Assembly (NCBI RefSeq): GCF_949628265.1
Contig: NC_088789.1
Coordinates: 8,052,886 to 8,116,885 of the forward strand
Length of the DNA: 64,000 bases
Direction of reading: 5' to 3'
DNA from: Cloeon dipterum
Lineage: Eukaryota > Arthropoda > Insecta > Ephemeroptera > Baetidae
The translations under genes were made by a program, and so were the position numbers. This document shows, one piece after another, positions 2,966-16,491 of the stretch (the stretch's first letter is position 1; every line of letters starts with the position of its first letter). The notes beneath the pieces were generated by a model. That model was not told the DNA's origin and made no database searches. It worked only from the letters and a program-made list of their open reading frames with translations.

Positions 2966-2974
2966 AAACAAAAA
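2966..2974. repeat. Target site duplication, left copy (AAACAAAAA)
   Basis: The nine bases AAACAAAAA lie directly outside the left terminal repeat and recur without mismatch at 14733-14741 directly outside the right one. Nine-base duplications are typical of Mutator-like transposons. The A-rich sequence makes chance identity less unlikely than usual, but both copies abut repeat tips that align to each other. Confidence 0.8.
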
Positions 2975-3035
2975 GGGTAATTATATATACACGGATCGTC
3001 CGTGTATTTATCAAAATTTTGTGCATATTTGTTAT

Positions 3036-3210
3036 TTGCACAGACGATCTGTGTCAAAGGAATGCGTGTATTTGTTAGTTGCAAAGACGATCTGTGTACA
3101 AGGGAATGCGTGTATTTGTTAGTTGCAAAGACGATCTGTGTACAAGGGAATGCGTGTATTTGTTAGTTGCAAAGACGATCTGTGTACAAGGGAATGCGTG
3201 TATGTGTTAG
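3036..3210. repeat. Subterminal tandem repeat, left arm (43-44 bp unit, about 4 copies)
   Basis: Units read GCAAAGACGATCTGTGTACA followed by AGGGAATGCGTGTATTTGTT and AGTT. The outermost unit is a 43-bp variant (GACGATCTGTGTCAAAGG). Subterminal repeats of this kind are common transposase-binding sites in MULEs; that role here is inferred. Confidence 0.85.
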
Positions 3211-3469
3211 TTGCAAAGACGCTTATAGGATATGATACGGTGACGTCATAACATTCTTTTGGCGGTGAATTTTTCAAAATGGCGGACGAGCCAGTGGGTC
3301 CATGTAATGCGTTCCGCTTTCTAGGGTCATTTTTTGCCTTTTTAGGGTAGAAATCACGCCTAAAGTGACGAGATAAAGCGGTCCTGGCTTCACTAGCAAC
3401 CTGTGCGATGAAGTTCTCTTGTGAGAAAACCATCCCTGGCCTCATGGGTGGCGTGTACCATGCAGATTC

Positions 3470-3930
3470 CTCATTCCTGTGAGAAAGCGACGCTGGCAGC
3501 ATGGCCAAGCTTCGTAATGCAGGTATAAATCTGTTCTATTATGTTTTTTAGTGATTTTAACTTTTGGAACCTTCGGCAGGCGCAGCCACTCAGTGTCCTT
3601 TCGGAAGATGCGATCCTGATTGCTTTGCAGGCCGTGGCAGACAGATTTCCTGTGAAAAAGCGACGCTGCCAGCATGGCCAAGCTTCGTAATGCAGGTATA
3701 AATGTATATTATTCTATTATTTAGTGATTTTAACTTTTGGAACCTTCGGCAGGCGCAGCCACTCAGTGTCCTTTTGGAAGATGCGATCCTGATTGCTTTG
3801 CAGGCCGTGGCAGACAGATTTCCTGTGTAAAAGCGACGCTGCCAGCATGGCCAAGCTTCGTAATGCAGGTATAAATGTATATTATTCTATTATTTAGTGA
3901 TTTTAATTTTTGGAATCTTCGGCAGGTGCT
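3470..3930. repeat. About 173-bp tandem repeat inside the left arm
   Basis: The phrase TTTTGGAACCTTCGGCAGG recurs at about 3562, 3736 and (diverged) 3908, and ATGGCCAAGCTTCGTAATGC recurs near 3500, 3672 and 3846, a period of roughly 173 bases. The mirror copy in the right arm lies at about 13690-14140. Each unit holds an acceptor-like CGGCAG and a donor-like GCAGGTATAAAT about 116 bases apart, and one reading frame between them is cysteine-rich. Confidence 0.75.
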
Positions 3931-5360
3931 GCCATACTAATTTCTGTGAGGAATGCAAACCAGGCTTCGCGGGCAAAAATTGAATTAAAATAATTTTGAA
4001 AATATTTATTATTAAATTAATTAATTAGAGCTGAAGATATTTGTGCTCAGAGAAAATATCTTGGCATCATGAATATATCTGCGGCTAAATACAAAACGGG
4101 GATGGGCACGAAATTCAAAGAGGAAAATATTTGCCTGTTGTTTTTCTATTACCAAGCCGCCTGTGAACTGAGAACACTTTTGGCCCCCTCTCGGTCACTG
4201 GAGTCGCCATATTTTTCTACGACTGCTGCGCCAATTGAATAGAAATGTCAATTTTCGTTTTTAACCACCTATGGTCTCCCTATTCCACTGGAGTTGTTTT
4301 TTATTTCAACTAAAGCTCCTATAACTAGACAAAAAGTGTTAAATTTCTTGTTGAATCACTCATGGTCCCCCTCTACTACTGGAGGTGCAAATTTTTAGCG
4401 TCTGCAGTGCCATTTAAACGTACCCTATCGAAAACACTTCCAATACCCCTCTGCGTATGCAAAATTAACCGTTGTTACACTCAAAACCACACTTGACCCC
4501 CTCTCCAATACTGGAGTCGTGAATTTAGCGACCCAAATGGCCAATCTAACAACTACAACCCCTTTTCAAATCCTTACCACCTCAACTTCTCTCTCAACTC
4601 CTACTCTAAAGGGGGGGGGGGCAAGTGTGCTGTTTTACCGAATTTTCCTCAATTTTACTGTCTTCTTTAAGGTTAGCCATTTGCTGATGCTGCAGTCGAT
4701 GTTGGGCAGATTCTGCAATGCAAATATCTGTGACAAAATCTACCCTGGCTCCAAGGGCAGACATGCATTGATACATTTATGAATATTTTTCTTCATCAGT
4801 GACTCGTTTTGTAGCAACATATTAATTTATTAAAAATTTCAGGTCCCTTGCTAATTTCAACTTGAATCATCGGCTCGCGCTTAAATGCAGATTCCCTAAT
4901 GGAGAGCAATGATTGCGCTGTACTGTGAGAGCAGAGCGACACCGTGAGTGATGTTCTGGCTGGCAAAGCAGATTCCAGCGAGCAGAGCAAAAAGCAGAGC
5001 GTGATGGGCAGTTCTTCTGCGACCTAAATTATCGGAAGGTATTCAGACTAACCTAATGCTGGTGCATATGGCTTGCGTTGATCCTTTTTATTGCTACCTT
5101 CCCATTTTTCCCCTTGGTATATTTCTTTCCTTGGCATTGGCCATGTCTGCAAACTTGGTATGCCACTCATCCGACCAACTGTGGGTGACTTTTTAATGCA
5201 TTGCCACTCCTTTTGGTCGCGTTTGTTGCGTACTAATTGCTTCTTTGCCAACCAATTTCAATACATAACTCTTGCAAGGATAGATAATAACAGAAATTTT
5301 CTCTGGCGATGAATTATTTTATTGATGGGTAGTAATCATACTGTTGGTTACATTTTATAT

Positions 5361-8300
5361 TTACTGAGCGGTCTTTCTGACTGGTGTTGTAGACATGGCG
5401 TTTTTTTCCTTGCATTTTTGGCACGTCCAGTTCGGAATGTCGGTGAAGGTCAAGTCTTTCATTTGATCTTGGTCTGCTAATGGGTGATTGATGCACTTAG
5501 GATGGTACCAAGTCTCGCATCCTTGGCACTGCATAGTGCATGTATCATACTCTTGTGGCAAACTACAAATGCAAAGTAGATCCAGAACCTGCTTCTTTTC
5601 TGTGTTCTTGATGTTACGTGGTTGTGTACTTTTCGGATAGATTGAAGCTTTTCCTTCAGCAATCACATTCGCGGTGTGCTTTCGAAGTTTCGGCATCGCA
5701 AAGCACTTTTGGATGTCTACAGCTCCTGTTGCACAGAATTCAGTTGCTATGGCCATAGCGTACATGGCACAATTATTTGAGCCTTTTTGGTACTCAATAT
5801 TCTTCTTGCTGATGATGACGCTTTTGTCACGCGCTTCCCTTGCAATGTATCCCATTTGAATGAGGATATCTTCTGGGATTTGGTCTCTTGTTGTTTTCAT
5901 GCTATCAAAATAATCAAATGACATTCCATCAAACACTACTGTCACGTAGTGCTCTCTTTTCTCGCTGTGGAGGATTTGAACATACGGCTTCTCATCAGAG
6001 TAATTGAATGTCAATGACGAGTCTTCAACTTTCATTACTGCAGGGGTGTGTAATCCTTGCACATGCTGACCGTAGGCATTTTTTAATATCGAAAGGTAAA
6101 CTGCGATCACCTCATCTGAGATCATGGACTCTTCGTCAAGAAGGTCTTCTATTGCTTGCGCAGGTAGTACCTCTTGCCGCAGCAGTTTGATGTGTAGCTC
6201 ATCTGCAAAATATTTAATGTGATTCACATTTAAACTTATGAAAGTCCATTAGCGCCATACCTGGGTCAGACTCAGCTGGAGCATATCCTTTTTTATACTT
6301 TGTCAAAGCTTTCCATCTGGTGTCAGACTTGGGCCTTCCAACTGCTGTTGTTGCTGGCCTTAATAGTGGTTTCTCTTTGGCCAACTGTACGACCGGGAAT
6401 CCCCCAACTGAGAAAATTTTTATTTGCTCTAATTGCTCTAATTCATATTCTAAAACCTTACCTTTTGTCACTTTGACAGTCTTATGTCTGGTGTCAGCTT
6501 TTTCACGACTTTGGCATCTCTCTTCTTCCACTTTTGCTGATATACTCCCTTGTGTAGACTCTATTTCGTCCAGCTGTCTCAAAAAATCATCACTCCAATC
6601 ATCATCATCTGTAAAATGTATTTATAAAACGAGCATTATTATCTTTAATAAGACATGATACAAATCCAAATTTGACCTCTTTGTGCATGATTTTAAGGTT
6701 AAATTTGCCGTGTTTTTTTATAATTAAATATCCAAGATGTGTTTGAATTTTGATAATTGGAAAGTAAGCTTTTTATGTGATTGCGTCACTTTGATATTTG
6801 GCATCTTTTAATTTCTTTCAAAATTTCAATAATTTTTAACTATGGAAGCGACACAATTCTCTTAATCTTAAAGTTGGAATCGTCATCCTTATATTCCAAT
6901 AGGCATATTAAAAATTAATATTTTATCGCAAGTAAAATTTATCATTTTTATTCAATATATGTCATTGCTATCTAATTTATTTAATATTTAAATTGATTCA
7001 ATATTACTCCATCTGGATTTCATGTTGTACTGACCTTCTAAATTTTGCAGAAGTGCATGATGGCGTTCAGTGATATGCTTTTGTATCTCCTGACCACTGA
7101 TCTGCGCATCACACCCTTGTGATGTAGTTGGAGCACTTGGCTCAATCAAGTCATCTAAATGTTCTGCTGCTAATTCAGAAGGAGATATGATGACAGTACA
7201 TCTCTTCGTCGGCGTGGAAGTCACTGTTTGAATTCTTGGTATTAGTCAGTGGTTATTAAGTTCGGGATTTACTATTACCCATTGGAGATGCAACTAATTC
7301 GTCGGAGGCCTCCAACTCGTCGTGGGTAGTGAGCCGATCGACATCTTCTATTTGATCTTCAAATTGATCTCTTTCGCTTTCCCCGCTCTGGTTGCTTTGT
7401 TCAATTTCTTGCCTTTCAGTTTCTCCTGAATTATCATGTATAATTATTTTAAGTGTAAATATATACACTTGAAAGATTAATATTGTCCCTGAGGGTTATA
7501 AATACTAGGAAAATGAAATCACAGTAAAACTATCAACCTGCAGTCACTGCTACTTGAAAATCTTTTCCATTTTGCAGGCAGGAGAGAATCAGCTCCATCT
7601 TTCTCTGCACTTCCACAGCCACTTTCTCTGGGAGGGTAGAGCAGCAAGTTGCAATTTGCTTCACAATGCGCATGGTGCTGTTATATTTTTCTGCCTCCGT
7701 TCTGTTCCTCGGATTTCGCGTCTTGATCACAAGGCTATCCTTTACTTTGCCCACTGCTGACGAAGTGTCGCAGTTGTACTTGAGTAACCAACGGGGTGCG
7801 ATGTCCTCGATGCCAAATTGCGGCATATTTGTGTCACTTCTTAACTTCATAATGTGCTTGCAAGGCAGTCCAGTATTTCCTCTGAATGGACACCTGCATT
7901 CGTTGACAGTGCTCGAGTATTTCATCAATTGCTCGTCTTTCAGCTTAGAAGCATATGTCTCTTGCTTGCCAAGTAAGTGAATAACAAAATCTGTTCCCTT
8001 TCCCTGCAGGAGCTTCCTCGCAAGGGATTTGTCGTTTCCCTTGTACAAGGGAACCTTGCAGCTGAGCACATGTTTCAAGTGCTCCTGTTCATTGGTACTC
8101 ACATTAGAGATGGCTAACAAGTTACTTATCAGCTCTAGAAGAGTTGAAGTCTTCTTCAGAACTCTTCCGATTACAGCATTGTGGCTTTCTGCCATGTTTG
8201 TGGTTCTTGTTCCAAAGTTCAGGGTCCTAGCTCGACCATACGAAGTCCACTGGTCAGCAATCTTATTCCAATTTTCATCATAGTACCTAAAATTGAAAGG

Positions 8301-10545
8301 ATATTTCAATTCCTATTAATTGTCAATGTAATACTAATTTATGCATGCGTGTTATGTTTTAAGAAGGTGATATTAACGTTTTCAAGATCTCCATCAAATT
8401 CTGTCTGGATTTTTATCACACTTTTTTAATGCCGATGATATATTAAAATAACAAAGAAATTTTTAGCGAGGTGACATAATTCAATTGCAAATAATTTATC
8501 TTGTAACTGAAACATTGAGAAATTTAAACTATAAGTTTCTTGAAACTATTCACATAATCACATGAAATCTTAAAAAATTGAAAATAGGTTTTATTACACA
8601 AGAATAAAATAAATTTGATCTGGGAGACGCATTAATAAGAATTTATTTATTTACCTTCTCATTTCATTCGATTCATCTGGAAGAAGGTTCTTCAACTGTT
8701 CATAATATTTTTCGTAGTCAGCCCTAGTGTGGGACTTGTACATCAGTTGTTCTATGGTTTGCTGCACTTCTTCTCGGACGTCGGCTGGAGCATATCGAAC
8801 GTGCTCAAGAAGCAGTTTGGCCGAGTGGAAGAGGCAGATATGGATGGCCACCTCAGGAAATATGTGCTCCACAGCAACCAATTCAACCATGGCTTTGTCG
8901 ATCAGGATAGTTTTAATTTCTCTTTCAGCTTTTTTGTGCACTCTTTTAATGCACTCAAGGGCTGCTTCAACTGATGCAAGCTTCTCGTCACGCAGCACTG
9001 CGTATCCAACTACTCTTCCTTTTCCATGGCCATCCACAACCAAATAGCACACTATTGGCATGTCAAGTCTGTTCTTCTTGTATGTTGAGTCAAACTGAAG
9101 AACTTCAGGAAATTTGTCAAAATTGTTGACCATGCTGCTTGTTACGATCATGAACCCGATGATCTCTTCTGTGTCATTGCACATGACGCCATAAAATCCT
9201 AAAAAATATATAATTCTGTACTTTCGAAAATTTTAAGTAAAAAATAGATTACTGCAAGCTCTTTTGTGCGCATTTTTATGATATTTGAAACGAAAATTCT
9301 CGACTGACGATTTTTTTATGTGAGATTGTTTATATATGAGACTGTTAATAGTTAAAACCGCAAAATTGCTCATCTTCCTAAATTTGAAACTGCATTCCAA
9401 AATTTGGCTATGTTTCTAATTTTGTTTCAAAACGTGTTTCCCGAAATGTAAGGGCAAAAGTGCCGTACACATATTTCTGAACAATCTTTTTTATTTTTGC
9501 GTTATTTCACTTCTTGATAGTTTAACCAATTTGAGATTACTTCCACTTAAAGCATTGAATTAATTTATCCGCGGTAAACGCTTATGACAACAAAACCTTT
9601 TGTATTTCTAATTTTCAATGTATTCATTTGCGACTGGCCAGAATATGCATAAAAACGATACAAACTAAGTGAGAAAATCTTATCTGCATAATGTTTCCCG
9701 AAAGCTTTACAATATTTGTACAAATTAATAGAATTATATGTACCATCCGGATCTGCTTTGTCGTGCTCCGATAGTACCTCCATTACCTCTGCCAGCTCCC
9801 TGTTTGCCTCTGGGACTTCTTGGTATTTTTGTAGCCGTTCCACTTTGAATTTTTGCCTGATACAAATTTATTATAAAAATAATGAATATGACCATTTTTC
9901 TCTGCGAACTTCAAGTTAGCCAAGTCTCTCGCCAAAAACATTTTCCCTGTTTCCTTCTGAATGATGTTTCTGCTGATGGTTCTATTCACAGGTCCAACAA
10001 TCATCATTTTGTAGTTGGATTTTTCTTCATCATCCAGCCGTCTGTTTTCTGGCAAATTCGCAAAAGTATGTTCATCACATTTGTGGTTATGAAGGCTTGG
10101 ATCCAATCTTCCTTCTTTGATGTAAATGTATTTGACTCCATTGTCGTCACTTGTAATGCCAGTTTTAAAGTACACGGGGCAGCCTTGCTTGTAAGATCTG
10201 CAAAACGCGCAGTTTTCATAATGTGACCAAGAATAGCAAATTTTACGCAGAGAGATGAGTATATTTGGTGTGAATATGATCAAACCTTGTGTTCAGCTTT
10301 GGTTTCACCCCAGATTTTGGGGGCTTCTGTCTCGGTTGCCCACTAAGTTTGCATGCATAGTGGGCGTTCAAATACTTTATTTCCTTGTATTTTTCAGAAC
10401 TCTTCAAAGTTTTCCTTGAAGCAACAGTCGTTGCTGACACCACAGAATATATAGTGAACGTAGCTTTCTGTTCGTTGTCCAAAGCCTTTTGAAAGTCTGA
10501 GTGAGACTTAAATCGCTGACCTAATTTTAAATAGGGATGAGCCAT
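5361..10545 (-). CDS. MULE transposase with FAR1-like, DDE, SWIM, ULP1-like peptidase and PHD domains
   Basis: Exons read: 10545-10286, 10197-9893, 9842-9744, 9198-8655, 8286-7538, 7425-7279, 7223-7035, 6608-6261 and 6202-5361. They total 3483 nt, giving 1160 residues with all phases matching. Domains: FAR1/WRKY-GCM1-like finger (Cys65, Cys93, His123, His125); MULE DDE core with QFDSTYKKN (Asp258), ILIDKAM (Asp322), CLFH (Cys343, His346) and TTNMAESHN (Glu436); SWIM finger CRC...CKH (533-547); ULP1/C48-like peptidase with His965, Asp980, Gln1019 and Cys1025; PHD finger (1091-1144). Role: cuts and joins the element's ends in the nucleus. The peptidase probably acts on SUMO or a similar modifier, by family analogy. 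A possible extra intron lies within the eighth exon (GTAAGG to CTCAG, in phase). The last part of the gene lies inside the left inverted repeat. Splicing is predicted, not observed. Confidence 0.85.
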
Positions 10546-11890
10546 CTTCCCTAAGTCAAATTAACACTGAGTCGCAATACTAAATGTGCTGGGAGAGAAT
10601 GTCGTCTCTCCCACCCCAACCATGAGACTTACGCTTTGAGGTGCAACAGTAATATATAAATAATAATATTAATAAGAGCAAATCATTCATTTAGTTTGCG
10701 TTATTCTTGTTGACTTTTCAGTATTTGCCGTTATTATAATTTTGAATCGCGTGATTTAATAAAATGGGAATAACATGTTATCAAATGTTACCACAAAAGG
10801 TAATATGTTCACCTCTCGCAATTTGTTCCAATGTCTACATGCAGAATGTAACCGGTTGTATTATGTGTGTCTGGATTGTTGTCTCCAAGTCAGTGCTCTC
10901 ATTCATGCGATTTATATGTCTCATCAATCAAAACAATATTCTGTTTTATTCATTAATTGAGGTCTGCGATTTAACATTGCTACCTACAATACAAGCTTGA
11001 TTAAATTTGCAATGGCGCGAAAGTAAAGGCGGAGTTTCTGTTTATAGATGCATATTATAATATACATATGGTCAGTTACCTAGAGGAAATAACTAGAACA
11101 TTTGAGCGAAGCTGATCCTTTAACATGGTCAAAACAACTCAAAAAGAGCCAACATATAAACATAAATTTATAGTCTTCTTATGCAAAACAACGCATTCAA
11201 AATATATTAGAAAAACGAAATAATTGATGTTCAATATCACAACCCTCTAGGAGTGTCATTTTTCTCTCATATTTAAAAATATTCTAGTGACAATGATTCC
11301 TTTGAAACTGACGAATGTGAACGTGATGTGATAGTAAGAATGGAATATAATTTACACACAATCTAAGAACTTAACAAGCGCCGTAACGTTTAAGTTTGAG
11401 ATAAGGCAATATGCACATTCTAAAGGAGCATCAATTTAAAATATAATCACACACCTAGACTAACAATAAAAGTTGTTGGCCACATTATTGACCCGTGTAA
11501 ATTTGAAACATAGCTAGTGCATTAAAAGCAACGTCAAATATATCACTTGCAAAAGGTTATCAGCATTTACAAAAAGTCCAACAAAAGTAGTTTTAATAAT
11601 TTTATTCTATACAAAAACTAACAGCCTTTGAAACGTTACAGGCGGCTAGAGCAAACTTAATTTGCAACAAGTTTCCATGTATAAAAGGAGCTGCAATTTA
11701 TACATTCAATTTATATAACAGGTTCCCATATATAAAGGATTTTATCATCTATCATGAAGTAATTTAATTATAGTAAGATTTTGTCAGGACCATGTGTGTG
11801 GCCCTTCCTCACATGCTTACTATAACTTTTTAAATGACATGCATTTCATGATTAAATAGCATGTAGAAAAACATTTAAACATTAAAACAT
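10546..11890. other. Non-coding interior of the MULE, upstream of the transposase
   Basis: AT-rich sequence with no convincing coding signal on either strand. It contains the presumed transposase promoter; an AT-rich TATA-like stretch lies at about 10655-10670, roughly 110 bases upstream of the predicted start, but this is weak evidence. Confidence 0.5.
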
Positions 11891-12085
11891 GTAAAACAGC
11901 ACACTTGCCCCCCCCCCTTTAGAGTAGGAGTTGAGAGAGAAGTTGAGGTGGTAAGGATTTGAAAAGGGGTTGTAGTTGTTAGATTGGCCATTTGGGTCGC
12001 TAAATTCACGACTCCAGTATTGGAGAGGGGGTCAAGTGTGGTTTTGAGTGTAACAACGGTTAATTTTGCATACGCAGAGGGGTAT
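11891..12085. repeat. Extra copy of an internal terminal-repeat segment next to the right arm
   Basis: About 195 bases from GTAAAACAGCACACTTGCCC to GCAGAGGGGTATT repeat 12981-13175 in the same orientation, and so also occur inverted in the left arm near 4460-4650. The copy abuts the inner end of the right arm at 12086, giving a scrambled junction that has no partner on the left side. Confidence 0.85.
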
Positions 12086-12258
12086 TGCAGTGCCAAGGAT
12101 GCGAGACTTGGTACCATCCTAAGTGCATCAATCACCCATTAGCAGACCAAGATCAAATGAAAGACTTGACCTTCACCGACATTCCGAACTGGACGTGCCA
12201 AAAATGCAAGGAAAAAAACGCCATGTCTACAACACCAGTCAGAAAGACCGCTCAGTAA
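12086..12258 (+). pseudogene. Duplicate 3' fragment of the transposase gene in the right arm
   Basis: The sequence matches the left-arm end of the transposase gene. It encodes only the second half of the PHD finger (GCETWYHPKC onward) and the C-terminal tail ending TPVRKTAQ before a stop, with the AATAAA signal following near 12296. There is no upstream coding sequence, so it is a by-product of the long inverted repeat and not a functional gene. Confidence 0.8.
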
Positions 12259-14399
12259 ATATAAAATGTAACCAACAGTATGATTACTACCCATCAATAA
12301 AATAATTCATCGCCAGAGAAAATTTCTGTTATTATCTATCCTTGCAAGAGTTATGTATTGAAATTGGTTGGCAAAGAAGCAATTAGTACGCAACAAACGC
12401 GACCAAAAGGAGTGGCAATGCATTAAAAAGTCACCCACAGTTGGTCGGATGAGTGGCATACCAAGTTTGCAGACATGGCCAATGCCAAGGAAAGAAATAT
12501 ACCAAGGGGAAAAATGGGAAGGTAGCAATAAAAAGGATCAACGCAAGCCATATGCACCAGCATTAGGTTAGTCTGAATACCTTCCGATAATTTAGGTCGC
12601 AGAAGAACTGCCCATCACGCTCTGCTTTTTGCTCTGCTCGCTGGAATCTGCTTTGCCAGCCAGAACATCACTCACGGTGTCGCTCTGCTCTCACAGTACA
12701 GCGCAATCATTGCTCTCCATTAGGGAATCTGCATTTAAGCGCGAGCCGATGATTCAAGTTGAAATTAGCAAGGGACCTGAAATTTTTAATAAATTAATAT
12801 GTTGCTACAAAACGAGTCACTGATGAAGAAAAATATTCATAAATGTATCAATGCATGTCTGCCCTTGGAGCCAGGGTAGATTTTGTCACAGATATTTGCA
12901 TTGCAGAATCTGCCCAACATCGACTGCAGCATCAGCAAATGGCTAACCTTAAAGAAGACAGTAAAATTGAGGAAAATTCGGTAAAACAGCACACTTGCCC
13001 CCCCCCCCCTTTAGAGTAGGAGTTGAGAGAGAAGTTGAGGTGGTAAGGATTTGAAAAGGGGTTGTAGTTGTTAGATTGGCCATTTGGGTCGCTAAATTCA
13101 CGACTCCAGTATTGGAGAGGGGGTCAAGTGTGGTTTTGAGTGTAACAACGGTTAATTTTGCATACGCAGAGGGGTATTGGAAGTGTTTTCGATAGGGTAC
13201 GTTTAAATGGCACTGCAGACGCTAAAAATTTGCACCTCCAGTAGTAGAGGGGGACCATGAGTGATTCAACAAGAAATTTAACACTTTTTGTCTAGTTATA
13301 GGAGCTTTAGTTGAAATAAAAAACAACTCCAGTGGAATAGGGAGACCATAGGTGGTTAAAAACGAAAATTGACATTTCTATTCAATTGGCGCAGCAGTCG
13401 TAGAAAAATATGGCGACTCCAGTGACCGAGAGGGGGCCAAAAGTGTTCTCAGTTCACAGGCGGCTTGGTAATAGAAAAACAACAGGCAAATATTTTCCTC
13501 TTTGAATTTCGTGCCCATCCCCGTTTTGTATTTAGCCGCAGATATATTCATGATGCCAAGATATTTTCTCTGAGCACAAATATCTTCAGCTCTAATTAAT
13601 TAATTTAATAATAAATATTTTCAAAATTATTTTAATTCAATTTTTGCCCGCGAAGCCTGGTTTGCATTCCTCACAGAAATTAGTATGGCAGCACCTGCCG
13701 AAGATTCCAAAAATTAAAATCACTAAATAATAGAATAATATACATTTATACCTGCATTACGAAGCTTGGCCATGCTGGCAGCGTCGCTTTTACACAGGAA
13801 ATCTGTCTGCCACGGCCTGCAAAGCAATCAGGATCGCATCTTCCAAAAGGACACTGAGTGGCTGCGCCTGCCGAAGGTTCCAAAAGTTAAAATCACTAAA
13901 TAATAGAATAATATACATTTATACCTGCATTACGAAGCTTGGCCATGCTGGCAGCGTCGCTTTTTCACAGGAAATCTGTCTGCCACGGCCTGCAAAGCAA
14001 TCAGGATCGCATCTTCCGAAAGGACACTGAGTGGCTGCGCCTGCCGAAGGTTCCAAAAGTTAAAATCACTAAAAAACATAATAGAACAGATTTATACCTG
14101 CATTACGAAGCTTGGCCATGCTGCCAGCGTCGCTTTCTCACAGGAATGAGGAATCTGCATGGTACACGCCACCCATGAGGCCAGGGATGGTTTTCTCACA
14201 AGAGAACTTCATCGCACAGGTTGCTAGTGAAGCCAGGACCGCTTTATCTCGTCACTTTAGGCGTGATTTCTACCCTAAAAAGGCAAAAAATGACCCTAGA
14301 AAGCGGAACGCATTACATGGACCCACTGGCTCGTCCGCCATTTTGAAAAATTCACCGCCAAAAGAATGTTATGACGTCACCGTATCATATCCTATAAGC

Positions 14400-14690
14400 G
14401 TCTTTGCAACTAACACATACACGCATTCCCTTGTACACAGATCGTCTTTGCAACTAACAAATACACGCATTCCCTTGTACACAGATCGTCTTTGCAACTA
14501 ACAAATACACGCATTCCCTTGTACACAGATCGTCTTTGCAACTAACAAATACACGCATTCCCTTGTACACAGATCGTCTTTGCAACTAACAAATACACGC
14601 ATTCCTTTGACACAGATCGTCTGTGCAAATAACAAATACACGCATTCCTTTGACACAGATCGTCTGTGCAAATAACAAATATGCACAAAA
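14400..14690. repeat. Subterminal tandem repeat, right arm (43-44 bp unit, about 6 copies)
   Basis: The same unit as at 3036-3210 in reverse complement: four CCCTTGTACACAGATCGTC-type units followed outward by two CTTTGACACAGATCGTC-type units. Units are contiguous, with no unique spacers between them. Confidence 0.85.
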
Positions 14691-14732
14691 TTTTGATAAA
14701 TACACGGACGATCCGTGTATATATCATCACCC

Positions 14733-14741
14733 AAACAAAAA
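14733..14741. repeat. Target site duplication, right copy (AAACAAAAA)
   Basis: Perfect match to 2966-2974, directly outside the right terminal repeat. Confidence 0.8.
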
Positions 14742-14962: not shown

Positions 14963-16491
14963 ATGCTGAGGAACGATGAAGAAGACGATTATTGGGATGA
15001 AGTTGCGCCAAAGGCAAACATTTCGTGGGATGATTTGGACCAAAAGGTTAGCCTTCAACCCAGACAGTCTTGGTTATCTGACCTAATTTTTGTGATTGAT
15101 TTGTAGAATCTGCTGGGAGCTACAGCGGGTTCAACAGGAAAATTGTACCAGCAGTTAAAAAGTTTTGATTCACTCAGCATTTTGGATTCCAACCAATCGG
15201 CTCAAGGTAATTGAGTGGACAAAGTTGGAATAGTAAATTGTATTATTTTAATCATTTTTTCAGGGCAATCAAGTGAGCCAATCGTCCCCTTGACGAGCCT
15301 GGTTTTAGAATCGAATATTGATTTAAGTAAGTGCTATAAAAAACATAATTTGTTTTCAAAATAATTATATCGATAATTTTAGTTGTGCGGCTAGAGCGAC
15401 CAGATTTACAAGAGATAAATAAAACCATCAGTGAAGAAACACTGATAGAGGAAATGCTTCTTGGTCACCCTGTCTCTCTCGATAGTTGCAAATCCCTAAG
15501 GGCAAAGACAAATCTTCTTCAGGGAGCAGTCAACAGTGCAGATGGCGAAGTAATTTTAAAGGTCAGTTTTAATTTACGCAATTGAACTTTTCAACATTCT
15601 TGAGCTCAATTTTCCGCAGGTGGTCCTTTATCTCATGAGCACTTTGTCCAAAAAACACGCGAACAAGATGCTTGGACAGCATCCAGTTGCTGCCAAGGTG
15701 TATGCCAATTATTTATCCGTGTCAAATCAACACCCTTCTTTGGCAAATCTGCTTGAGTGAGATTTAAAATGGAATTTGGAAATATTTCCTAACGTTTTCT
15801 TTCTACAGATCGTTAGGAAAAATGAGAGAAGATGCTGTAAGTCTTAGTTAACAGATTTTTACTCTTGAAACTAACGTTTCTGAATAGATTTTGCAATATT
15901 ATTTGGCGAACTTGAACCAAACCGCAGGCGCTGCAAGACAAGCGCAAAATATTTTCTCCGTGTCTAGCAGCCATTTCAACAGCGAAGCCAGTGACAAACA
16001 CCTCAAACGCCATGTTAAACTATTAGGTAAAACAAGATAAGCACTGTTTTCCAACTTAAATTCGCGTCAAAAATAGAGCTGTGCAGTGGCCTTGGAATGA
16101 ATTCGAACACCACAGGCCACGAGTGGCTTCGAGAGGCCTTGAGTCGCAATCCAGCTAATATTTCTCAAGCAGCAACTTCTATTGGAATGTCTGAAAAAAT
16201 TTACCAGTGGATAAGCTTGAAATACTACATTTCCAGCGGGAATTTCAAGGAGATTCAGAATACTTTTAAAACTGTAATGGAACTTTTCAACACTTTTAAA
16301 AAGCAAGTTAATAATTGTTATTTTAGTCCTGGTTGAGTGGAAACAGACCCAAATCCATCATCCCGCTGAACAAATTGGTGATCGAGCTGGAGAAATCTAA
16401 AGCGCCTAAGGAGCAAATCCTGAAGTACGTTAAAATGATCGAAGACCCTATAGAGAGGAGGAATTTAGAGGCAAAATACGCCAGCCTGTGA
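14963..16491 (+). CDS. VIPAS39: VIPAS39 / Vps16B (SPE-39) endosomal trafficking protein
   Basis: Nine exons: 14963-15046, 15107-15206, 15264-15326, 15383-15561, 15620-15756, 15809-15836, 15888-16026, 16077-16273 and 16327-16491. They total 1092 nt, giving 363 residues with consistent phases. The N-terminus MLRNDEEDDYWDEV is acidic like that of VIPAS39 (EEEYWNSS). A central LRAKTNLLQGAVNSADGEVI and a C-terminal LEKSKAPKEQILKYVKMIED match the order and wording of the vertebrate protein (HKNNAPVQILQEYVNLVED). Known: partners VPS33B in the CHEVI complex for endosome and lysosome-related organelle traffic. The protein ends about 50 residues earlier than the human one and its N-terminal linker is shorter. 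Its start lies about 220 bases from the transposon end; the 3' end converges on the next gene with a gap of about 170 bases. Confidence 0.82.

What the first reader, a model, noticed from the sequence alone, without database searches (positions are those of the whole stretch)
2966..14741. Apparently intact 11.8 kb MULE with target duplication and 2.6 kb inverted arms
Both tips align (GGGTRATKATATATACACGG), a perfect 9-bp duplication flanks them, the arms agree wherever compared by eye, and the transposase exons splice into an uninterrupted 1160-residue frame with every intron phase matching. Intact autonomous MULEs with arms this long are uncommon in animals. This copy may still be mobile.
Basis: partly seen in the sequence, partly recalled or inferred. 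Interest (0 to 1): 0.85.

Follow-up and report, generated by a model that had tools for sequence, protein, structure and literature searches.

The report
Recently mobile foldback-like Mutator transposon
This is an intact-looking 11.8-kb jumping gene of a known but sparsely described animal kind, with long mirror-image arms; a near-identical second copy sits elsewhere in the genome with its core turned round relative to its ends, so it has moved recently and its arms appear to recombine.

Summary
Window 2975-14732 is an 11,758-bp element between perfect 9-bp duplications (AAACAAAAA). Its arms (2,559 and 2,647 bp) differ by two substitutions, two minisatellite units and one base. A minus-strand gene (10545-5361, nine exons, 1,185 aa in my model) encodes a ZSWIM3-like N-terminus, a MULE DDE core, a PHD finger and, less certainly, a Ulp1/SENP-like domain. 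A second full copy, C2:35601001-35612626, has its own perfect duplication (AACTAAAAT), unrelated flanks and 6,783 bp verbatim, coding span included. Movement was therefore recent. The two copies carry their tips on opposite sides of the same-oriented core, and inner arm markers differ between copies but hardly within them: arm recombination has probably flipped the core, unless the assembly is wrong. Closest known kind: Rehavkus (9-bp duplication, PHD finger, minisatellite). Two related families in the genome share the protein tail. The element sits in a ~0.54-kb gap between two divergent candidate gene starts. Verdict: reader supported; new member of a known kind. Most unusual: the tip swap and the protein's tail. 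Present activity is untested.

The parts
2966..2974 (.). left target-site duplication AAACAAAAA
   Evidence: identical to 14733-14741
14733..14741 (.). right target-site duplication AAACAAAAA
2975..5533 (+). left arm, 2,559 bp, tip GGGTAATTAT
   Evidence: 99.8% over 2,510 bp to the reverse complement of the right arm; differences
12086..14732 (-). right arm, 2,647 bp, tip GGGTGATGAT
3026..3221 (+). subterminal 43/44-bp minisatellite, left (one 43-bp unit, three 44-bp units)
   Evidence: TRF; unit listing
14399..14681 (-). subterminal 43/44-bp minisatellite, right (two 43-bp units, four 44-bp units)
   Evidence: TRF; unit listing
2989..3185 (+). five copies of GACGATCYGTGT (four on +, the outermost on -), candidate transposase-binding sites, left end
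   Evidence: 12 exact matches in the window, all at the two element ends; mean 0.22 in shuffles with one mismatch allowed. Binding is inferred.
14435..14718 (-). seven copies of GACGATCYGTGT (six on -, the outermost on +), right end
3474..3934 (+). 173-bp tandem array (2.7 units), left arm
13686..14146 (-). 173-bp tandem array (2.7 units), right arm
5361..10545 (-). transposase gene, nine exons: 10545-10286, 10197-9910, 9856-9666, 9198-8655, 8286-7538, 7425-7279, 7223-7035, 6608-6261, 6202-5361; 1,185 aa
   Evidence: hand-picked GT..AG junctions with an open frame. Block edges near aa 87 and 183 recur in relatives, while exons 6-8 have almost no support from relatives. DDE candidates D283, D347, E461.
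5361..6202 (-). last exon: Ulp1/SENP-like domain (candidate H990, D1005, Q1044, C1050) and PHD finger (aa 1116-1169)
   Evidence: PHD: Pfam 9.4e-07. Ulp-like fold: shown on the homologous exon of family 2, 34% identical. Positions worked out.
11891..12087 (+). extra direct copy of right-arm segment 12981-13179, just inside the right arm
   Evidence: 99% identity
2413..2652 (-). start of a CCCH zinc-finger gene (candidate ATG at 2652), left neighbour
   Evidence: zf-CCCH 6.4e-06, above cut-off; ATG position
14963..15103 (+). candidate first coding stretch of a plus-strand gene, right neighbour
   Evidence: open frame from ATG 14963; no Pfam family above its cut-off

Best explanation
This is a structurally complete, autonomous-looking MULE of Rehavkus type that inserted recently. 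Shown by sequence: two full copies at unrelated sites, each with its own perfect 9-bp target duplication; an identical coding span; a DDE core. Inferred: the transposase binds the GACGATCYGTGT repeats clustered at both ends, excises the element and inserts it with a 9-bp stagger. The long arms then act as inverted homologous repeats: recombination between them has copied changes from arm to arm and, in one lineage, crossed over and turned the core round relative to the tips. The Ulp1/SENP-like domain may remove SUMO-type modifiers from the transposase or host factors, and the PHD finger may tether it to chromatin, perhaps near promoters. These last two roles are the least certain.
For: Different TSDs AAACAAAAA and AACTAAAAT, no flank similarity beyond the edges, bases 5124-11906 and the CDS span verbatim in the second copy. 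Pfam MULE, ZSWIM1-3 RNaseH-like, ZSWIM3_N and PHD above cut-off. DDE positions invariant in the two related families. The model of the family-2 last exon matches SUMO proteases (2hkp Ulp1, E 3.6e-05, TM 0.42/0.56); 7fiu ULP_PROTEASE aligned over H, Q and NNCG, E 0.017. Tip haplotypes: GGGTGATGAT with two 43-bp units in C4-right and C2-left; GGGTAATTAT with one 43-bp unit in C4-left and C2-right; core in the same orientation in both. The C4-left end matches the C2-right end at 100% over 203 bp. Inner SNP (arm column 2236) T,T in C4 and C,C in C2. 12 of 12 motif sites lie at the element ends.
Against: No reads or RNA were seen, so expression and present mobility are untested. Only two copies of this young family were found; 21 other tip-like rows are older or short (20 at 81-91%, one at 100% over 42 bp). 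The number of 44-bp units (3, 4, 2, 2) does not follow the tip swap. No Peptidase_C48 hit for the window protein or for the relatives' exons. The three-family profile reaches 7fiu only at E 0.84. The fold match rests on a relative at 34% identity, mean pLDDT 55.7; the window exon alone gave pLDDT 37.1. In the PHF2 alignment only the tryptophan of the recalled aromatic cage is kept in the window PHD, so H3K4me3 reading is doubtful. The second copy is not at an evident promoter. Tip swap and arm identity could be assembly or polishing errors.
Confidence: 0.88

Rival explanations
1. The tip swap and arm homogeneity are artefacts: the assembler placed one core the wrong way round, or consensus polishing made each copy's arms alike. 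The transposon itself is real.
For: The arms are near-identical over 2.5 kb, so reads shorter than an arm cannot link tip to core; no reads were available. The G-run lengths 7, 8, 6, 6 look like possible polishing noise. The 44-bp unit counts do not track the swap.
Against: 190 Mb in 10 contigs suggests long reads (inference), and a read of about 3 kb links a tip to the core. Three linked tip markers (two SNPs and a 43-bp unit) swap together.
Confidence: 0.25
2. The two copies arose by segmental duplication rather than by transposition.
For: Near-identity of the copies.
Against: Each has its own 9-bp duplication at the element edges, and flank similarity stops there.
Confidence: 0.01
3. The element is a Phantom-type MULE that acquired foldback arms, like Tm1 of root-knot nematodes, rather than a Rehavkus.
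For: Tm1 has tandem-repeat inverted ends and 9-bp TSDs with a Phantom-like transposase (PMC3169594, passages). PMC6446971 lists a minisatellite after the transposase ORF in aphid Phantom elements (passages).
Against: The PHD finger fits Rehavkus; Tm1-A encodes 496 aa with FLYWCH and MULE domains. No Rehavkus or Phantom reference sequence was available for a tree.
Confidence: 0.15

Closest known systems
Rehavkus (Repbase; Rehavkus-1_TC of Tribolium)
   Same: 9-bp TSD, PHD finger, minisatellite (PMC6446971, passages). Rehavkus-1_TC is 9.5 kb with 164-bp tandem repeats in its inverted termini (PMC10218199, passages).
   Different: TIRs listed as 26-400 bp against about 2.5 kb here. The passages I saw mention no Ulp1-like domain; the Repbase entries were not available.
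Tm1 (Mutator/Foldback, root-knot nematodes)
   Same: MULE transposase, 9-bp TSD, foldback-like ends built of tandem repeats (PMC3169594, passages).
   Different: 496-aa FLYWCH and MULE protein; no PHD finger mentioned in the passages seen.
Galileo (P superfamily, Drosophila)
   Same: Long arms, in one copy with tandem repeats; end of the ORF drawn into the TIR (PMC4168063, passages). Here bases 5361-5533 of the last exon lie in the left arm.
   Different: P-type transposase; 7-8 bp TSD.
Kaonashi and other plant MULEs with ULP1 domains
   Same: MULE-borne ULP1-like protease (recalled; only a search listing seen).
   Different: Plant elements; no PHD finger that I know of (recalled).
Muta1 of Aedes aegypti
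   Same: Animal MULE with 8-9 bp TSD, shown to move in yeast (PMC5225508, abstract and outline).
   Different: Arms and domain layout not compared here.

Membership tests
MULE (Mutator-like) | MULE/DDE transposase domain | tested here: met
   PF10551 4.4e-16, PF21056 4.2e-21; D283, D347, E461
MULE (Mutator-like) | 8-10 bp target duplication | tested here: met
   9 bp at both copies
MULE (Mutator-like) | inverted terminal repeats | tested here: met
Rehavkus | 9-bp TSD | tested here: met
   feature from PMC6446971
Rehavkus | PHD finger in the transposase protein | tested here: met
   PF00628 9.4e-07, 29.2 bits against a cut-off of 24
Rehavkus | minisatellite beside or in the terminal repeats | tested here: met
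   43/44-bp and 173-bp arrays
Rehavkus | TIR of 26-400 bp | tested here: not met
   arms 2,559 and 2,647 bp; a reported range, probably not a definition
Rehavkus | catalytic core branches with Rehavkus, outside other MULEs | not testable with these tools
   no Rehavkus reference protein at hand
Foldback-type element | very long inverted repeats containing tandem repeats | tested here: met
   structural likeness, not descent
C48/Ulp1 peptidase | Ulp1 fold with H-D-Q-C | tested here: inconclusive
   fold matched for the family-2 relative; corresponding letters in the window protein; no Pfam C48 hit; window exon model unusable

The most novel reading that the evidence does not exclude
The arms work as a recombination device. 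Arm-to-arm exchange repeatedly inverts the core and copies changes between arms, keeping both ends matched and the element competent, so the transposon exists as two isomers. The transposase couples this to a built-in SUMO-protease and a PHD chromatin reader that steer insertion to active promoters.
Probability: 0.25. Interest if true: 0.7.

Novelty: new member of a known kind. Interest (0 to 1): 0.5.

Why it matters
PMC6446971 says that very few Rehavkus elements are known and that they are described only in Repbase (passages). Here one genome holds a recently moved, structurally complete element, a near-identical sister insertion and two related families, enough to test how such elements move. 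The tip swap gives a direct, cheap test of whether long-armed transposons isomerise and keep their ends matched by recombination. A tail that aligns in all three families suggests a working part rather than a passenger, although family 3 has lost the protease's catalytic cysteine and aspartate.

Tried and rejected
Single-sequence AlphaFold of the window's last exon gave pLDDT 37.1 and was not used. Its viral-library search had 3 of 479 matches at E 0.001 or better, one named a ubiquitin-like cysteine protease, two unnamed. That agrees with the fold but was not used further.

The search for a paralogous empty site with joined flanks found the two flanks themselves and no uninterrupted site: 2 matches. 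In viral contigs, 172 stretches matched patterns from families 2 and 3 (alignment A3, which lacks the window protein) and none was confirmed. A paper search for Mutator-like + Ulp1 + PHD finger + transposase found 0 papers with all four terms; searches on arm recombination, internal inversion, H3K4me3 and peptidase C48 served for comparison. They do not show that nothing is in print.

Segmental duplication was rejected. I considered H3K4me3 targeting as a firm claim and withdrew it: in the PHF2 alignment only the tryptophan of the cage, as I recall it, is kept. The promoter position is good for the window copy. For family 3 a candidate start lies about 0.46 kb from the element, by open frame and eye only. 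For the second copy none is evident, and its site may be an intron. For family 2 it was not tested.

The host species was not identified: 190 Mb, five large contigs of 33-43 Mb. A yellow/MRJP-type gene near the second copy hints at an insect (recalled). The age scale, about 15,000 generations for one substitution and at most about 76,000 for none in 6,783 bp, uses a recalled mutation rate of 2.9e-9 and is only a scale.
Full report
The observation. The window lies in an unnamed 190-Mb, 10-contig genome at C4:8052886-8116885. The element occupies 2975-14732 (11,758 bp) between two perfect copies of AAACAAAAA. Its arms, 2,559 and 2,647 bp, align at 99.8% over 2,510 bp. They differ by two substitutions at tip positions 5 and 8, gaps of 43 and 44 bp (minisatellite units) and a 1-bp gap. 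The arms carry a 43/44-bp array near the tip and a 173-bp array further in. GACGATCYGTGT, one mismatch allowed, has 12 matches in the window. All 12 are exact and lie at the two ends of the element (5 and 7), against a mean of 0.22 in shuffles. I read them as transposase-binding sites; that is inference.

The gene. Pfam hits above cut-off are ZSWIM1-3_RNaseH-like, MULE, ZSWIM3_N and PHD; Transposase_mut is just below. The DDE candidates are D283, D347 and E461, at positions invariant in the two related families. The SWIM motif is seen by eye in the window protein and by Pfam in both relatives. Relatives support part of the exon chain: in family 2 a block edge falls at aa 87, and in both families one falls near aa 183, where the model has introns. 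Against that, family 2 matches without a break from aa 183 to 598, so introns 3 and 4 have no counterpart there. Aa 650-910 (exons 6-8) have almost no match in either family and rest on splice signals and frame alone.

The tail. In the three families the last part of the protein aligns. Family 2 has H, D, Q and NNCG in the order of Ulp1 proteases. The window protein has the corresponding letters, with NNCA. Family 3 lacks the cysteine and the aspartate. A model of the family-2 exon built on the three sequences (mean pLDDT 55.7, 93 of 310 residues at 70-90) gives 34 of 642 PDB matches at E 0.001 or better. Best is the SseL fold (3.0e-05), then yeast Ulp1 (2hkp, 3.6e-05, TM 0.42 by query and 0.56 by target), with human SENPs and PopP2 among the rest. 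By sequence, family 2 reaches the ULP_PROTEASE chain 7fiu at E 0.017, the three-family profile only at 0.84, and Pfam C48 is not hit. The window's own exon folded alone was not usable. The PHD finger passes Pfam's cut-off in the window protein and in family 3; in family 2 it falls just short (22.6 against 24). Its nearest solved relatives include EBS, SHORT LIFE, PHF2, SPP1, PHF8 and BPTF. These are known mainly as histone H3 readers (recalled), but in the PHF2 alignment the window protein keeps only the tryptophan of the cage as I recall it.

The second copy. C2:35601001-35612626 is 11,626 bp, flanked by perfect AACTAAAAT. Its flanks do not resemble those of the window copy. Bases 5124-11906 (6,783 bp), with the whole coding span, are verbatim the same. 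These are two separate insertions of one element, and recent ones. The interior 5534-11890 had 2 matches, both these copies; that tool's counts are lower bounds. Of 26 rows matching the terminal 251 bp, 5 lie in the two copies and 21 elsewhere: 20 at 81-91% identity and one at 100% over 42 bp. Sixteen of the 21 are on C4 between 31.0 and 35.1 Mb.

The tip swap. The core has the same orientation in both loci, yet the tips are exchanged. GGGTGATGAT with two 43-bp units is on the right in C4 and on the left in C2; GGGTAATTAT with one 43-bp unit is on the left in C4 and on the right in C2. The left end of C4 matches the right end of C2 at 100% over 203 bp and the left end of C2 at 98% over 251. 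Insertion orientation cannot produce this, because tips and core move together. A crossover between the arms would. The 44-bp units number 3 and 4 (C4 left, right) and 2 and 2 (C2), so they do not follow the swap and must change on their own. Further in, arm column 2236 is T in both C4 arms and C in both C2 arms, and the G-run is 7 and 8 against 6 and 6, as expected if changes are copied between arms within a copy. Assembly or polishing error remains the main alternative; I give it about one in four.

The site. The left neighbour is a minus-strand CCCH-finger gene with candidate start at 2652. The right neighbour has a plus-strand open frame starting at 14963 that no Pfam family names above cut-off. 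Without the element and one duplication the two candidate starts would be about 543 bp apart, so the element seems to sit in a divergent promoter. Maize Mu also favours start sites and H3K4me3 regions (PMC2774946, abstract and passages). With one good case here this is a lead, not a result. The second copy's site is not evidently a promoter.

Relatives in the same genome. Of 12 rows for the DDE region, 4 are the two copies, 5 are family 2, 1 is family 3, and 2 are a TGA-interrupted relic on C5. The other four family-2 copies match L039 at 99.6-99.9% over the two main blocks, and ~174-bp tandem arrays are seen in three of the five 9.5-kb stretches fetched; whether they form inverted arms was not settled. 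Family 3 is one element, C3:5456429-5476568, 20.1 kb, with inverted arms of tandem repeats and a candidate 9-bp duplication TTAATGTAA.

What it is. Of the four Rehavkus features tested, three are met (9-bp duplication, PHD finger, minisatellite). One, the listed arm length, is not, and I take that for a reported range rather than a definition. The tree test was impossible. I file it as a Rehavkus-type MULE, new member of a known kind, structurally foldback-like. The passages I saw report no Ulp-like domain for Rehavkus, but Repbase entries were not available, so I do not claim the domain as new. PMC13359780 gives complete arthropod MULEs of 1,875-9,972 bp with TIRs up to 1,193 bp (passages); that survey used Rehavkus as outgroup, so it is not a like-for-like record.

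Noticed in passing
L038-L042 (C1:23187000-23196500; C3:2298500-2308000, 34581500-34591000, 18636500-18646000, 35132000-35141500): A second PHD/Ulp-like MULE family: five copies 99.6-99.9% alike over the two main blocks, each with long open frames for the DDE region and the tail, ~174-bp tandem arrays in three of the five stretches fetched; another recently mobile family. Its ends and TSDs were not reached.
   Followed up: partly
L035-L037, C3:5456429-5476568: A third, 20.1-kb relative with inverted tandem-repeat arms, candidate TSD TTAATGTAA, and a protease domain lacking the catalytic cysteine and aspartate.
   Followed up: partly
window 11891-12087: A 197-bp direct copy of right-arm segment 12981-13179 lies just inside the right arm, in both copies of the element: possibly a step in arm growth.
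   Followed up: no
L055, C1:37883922-37885063: Several relatives of arm segment 4175-4700 (the best three 77-83%) stand close together on C1, perhaps a relic arm or a satellite-like cluster.
   Followed up: no
L044-L051, C4:31.0-35.1 Mb: Sixteen of 21 old or short tip-like matches cluster near one end of C4; some share flanks beyond the tips, as if embedded in a larger repeat (flanks compared by eye).
   Followed up: partly
L057 3-3113 (C2:35589502-35592612): A 1,037-aa open frame with the look of a non-LTR retrotransposon polymerase and an N-terminal PHD-like stretch, about 8 kb from the second copy (named by eye only).
   Followed up: no
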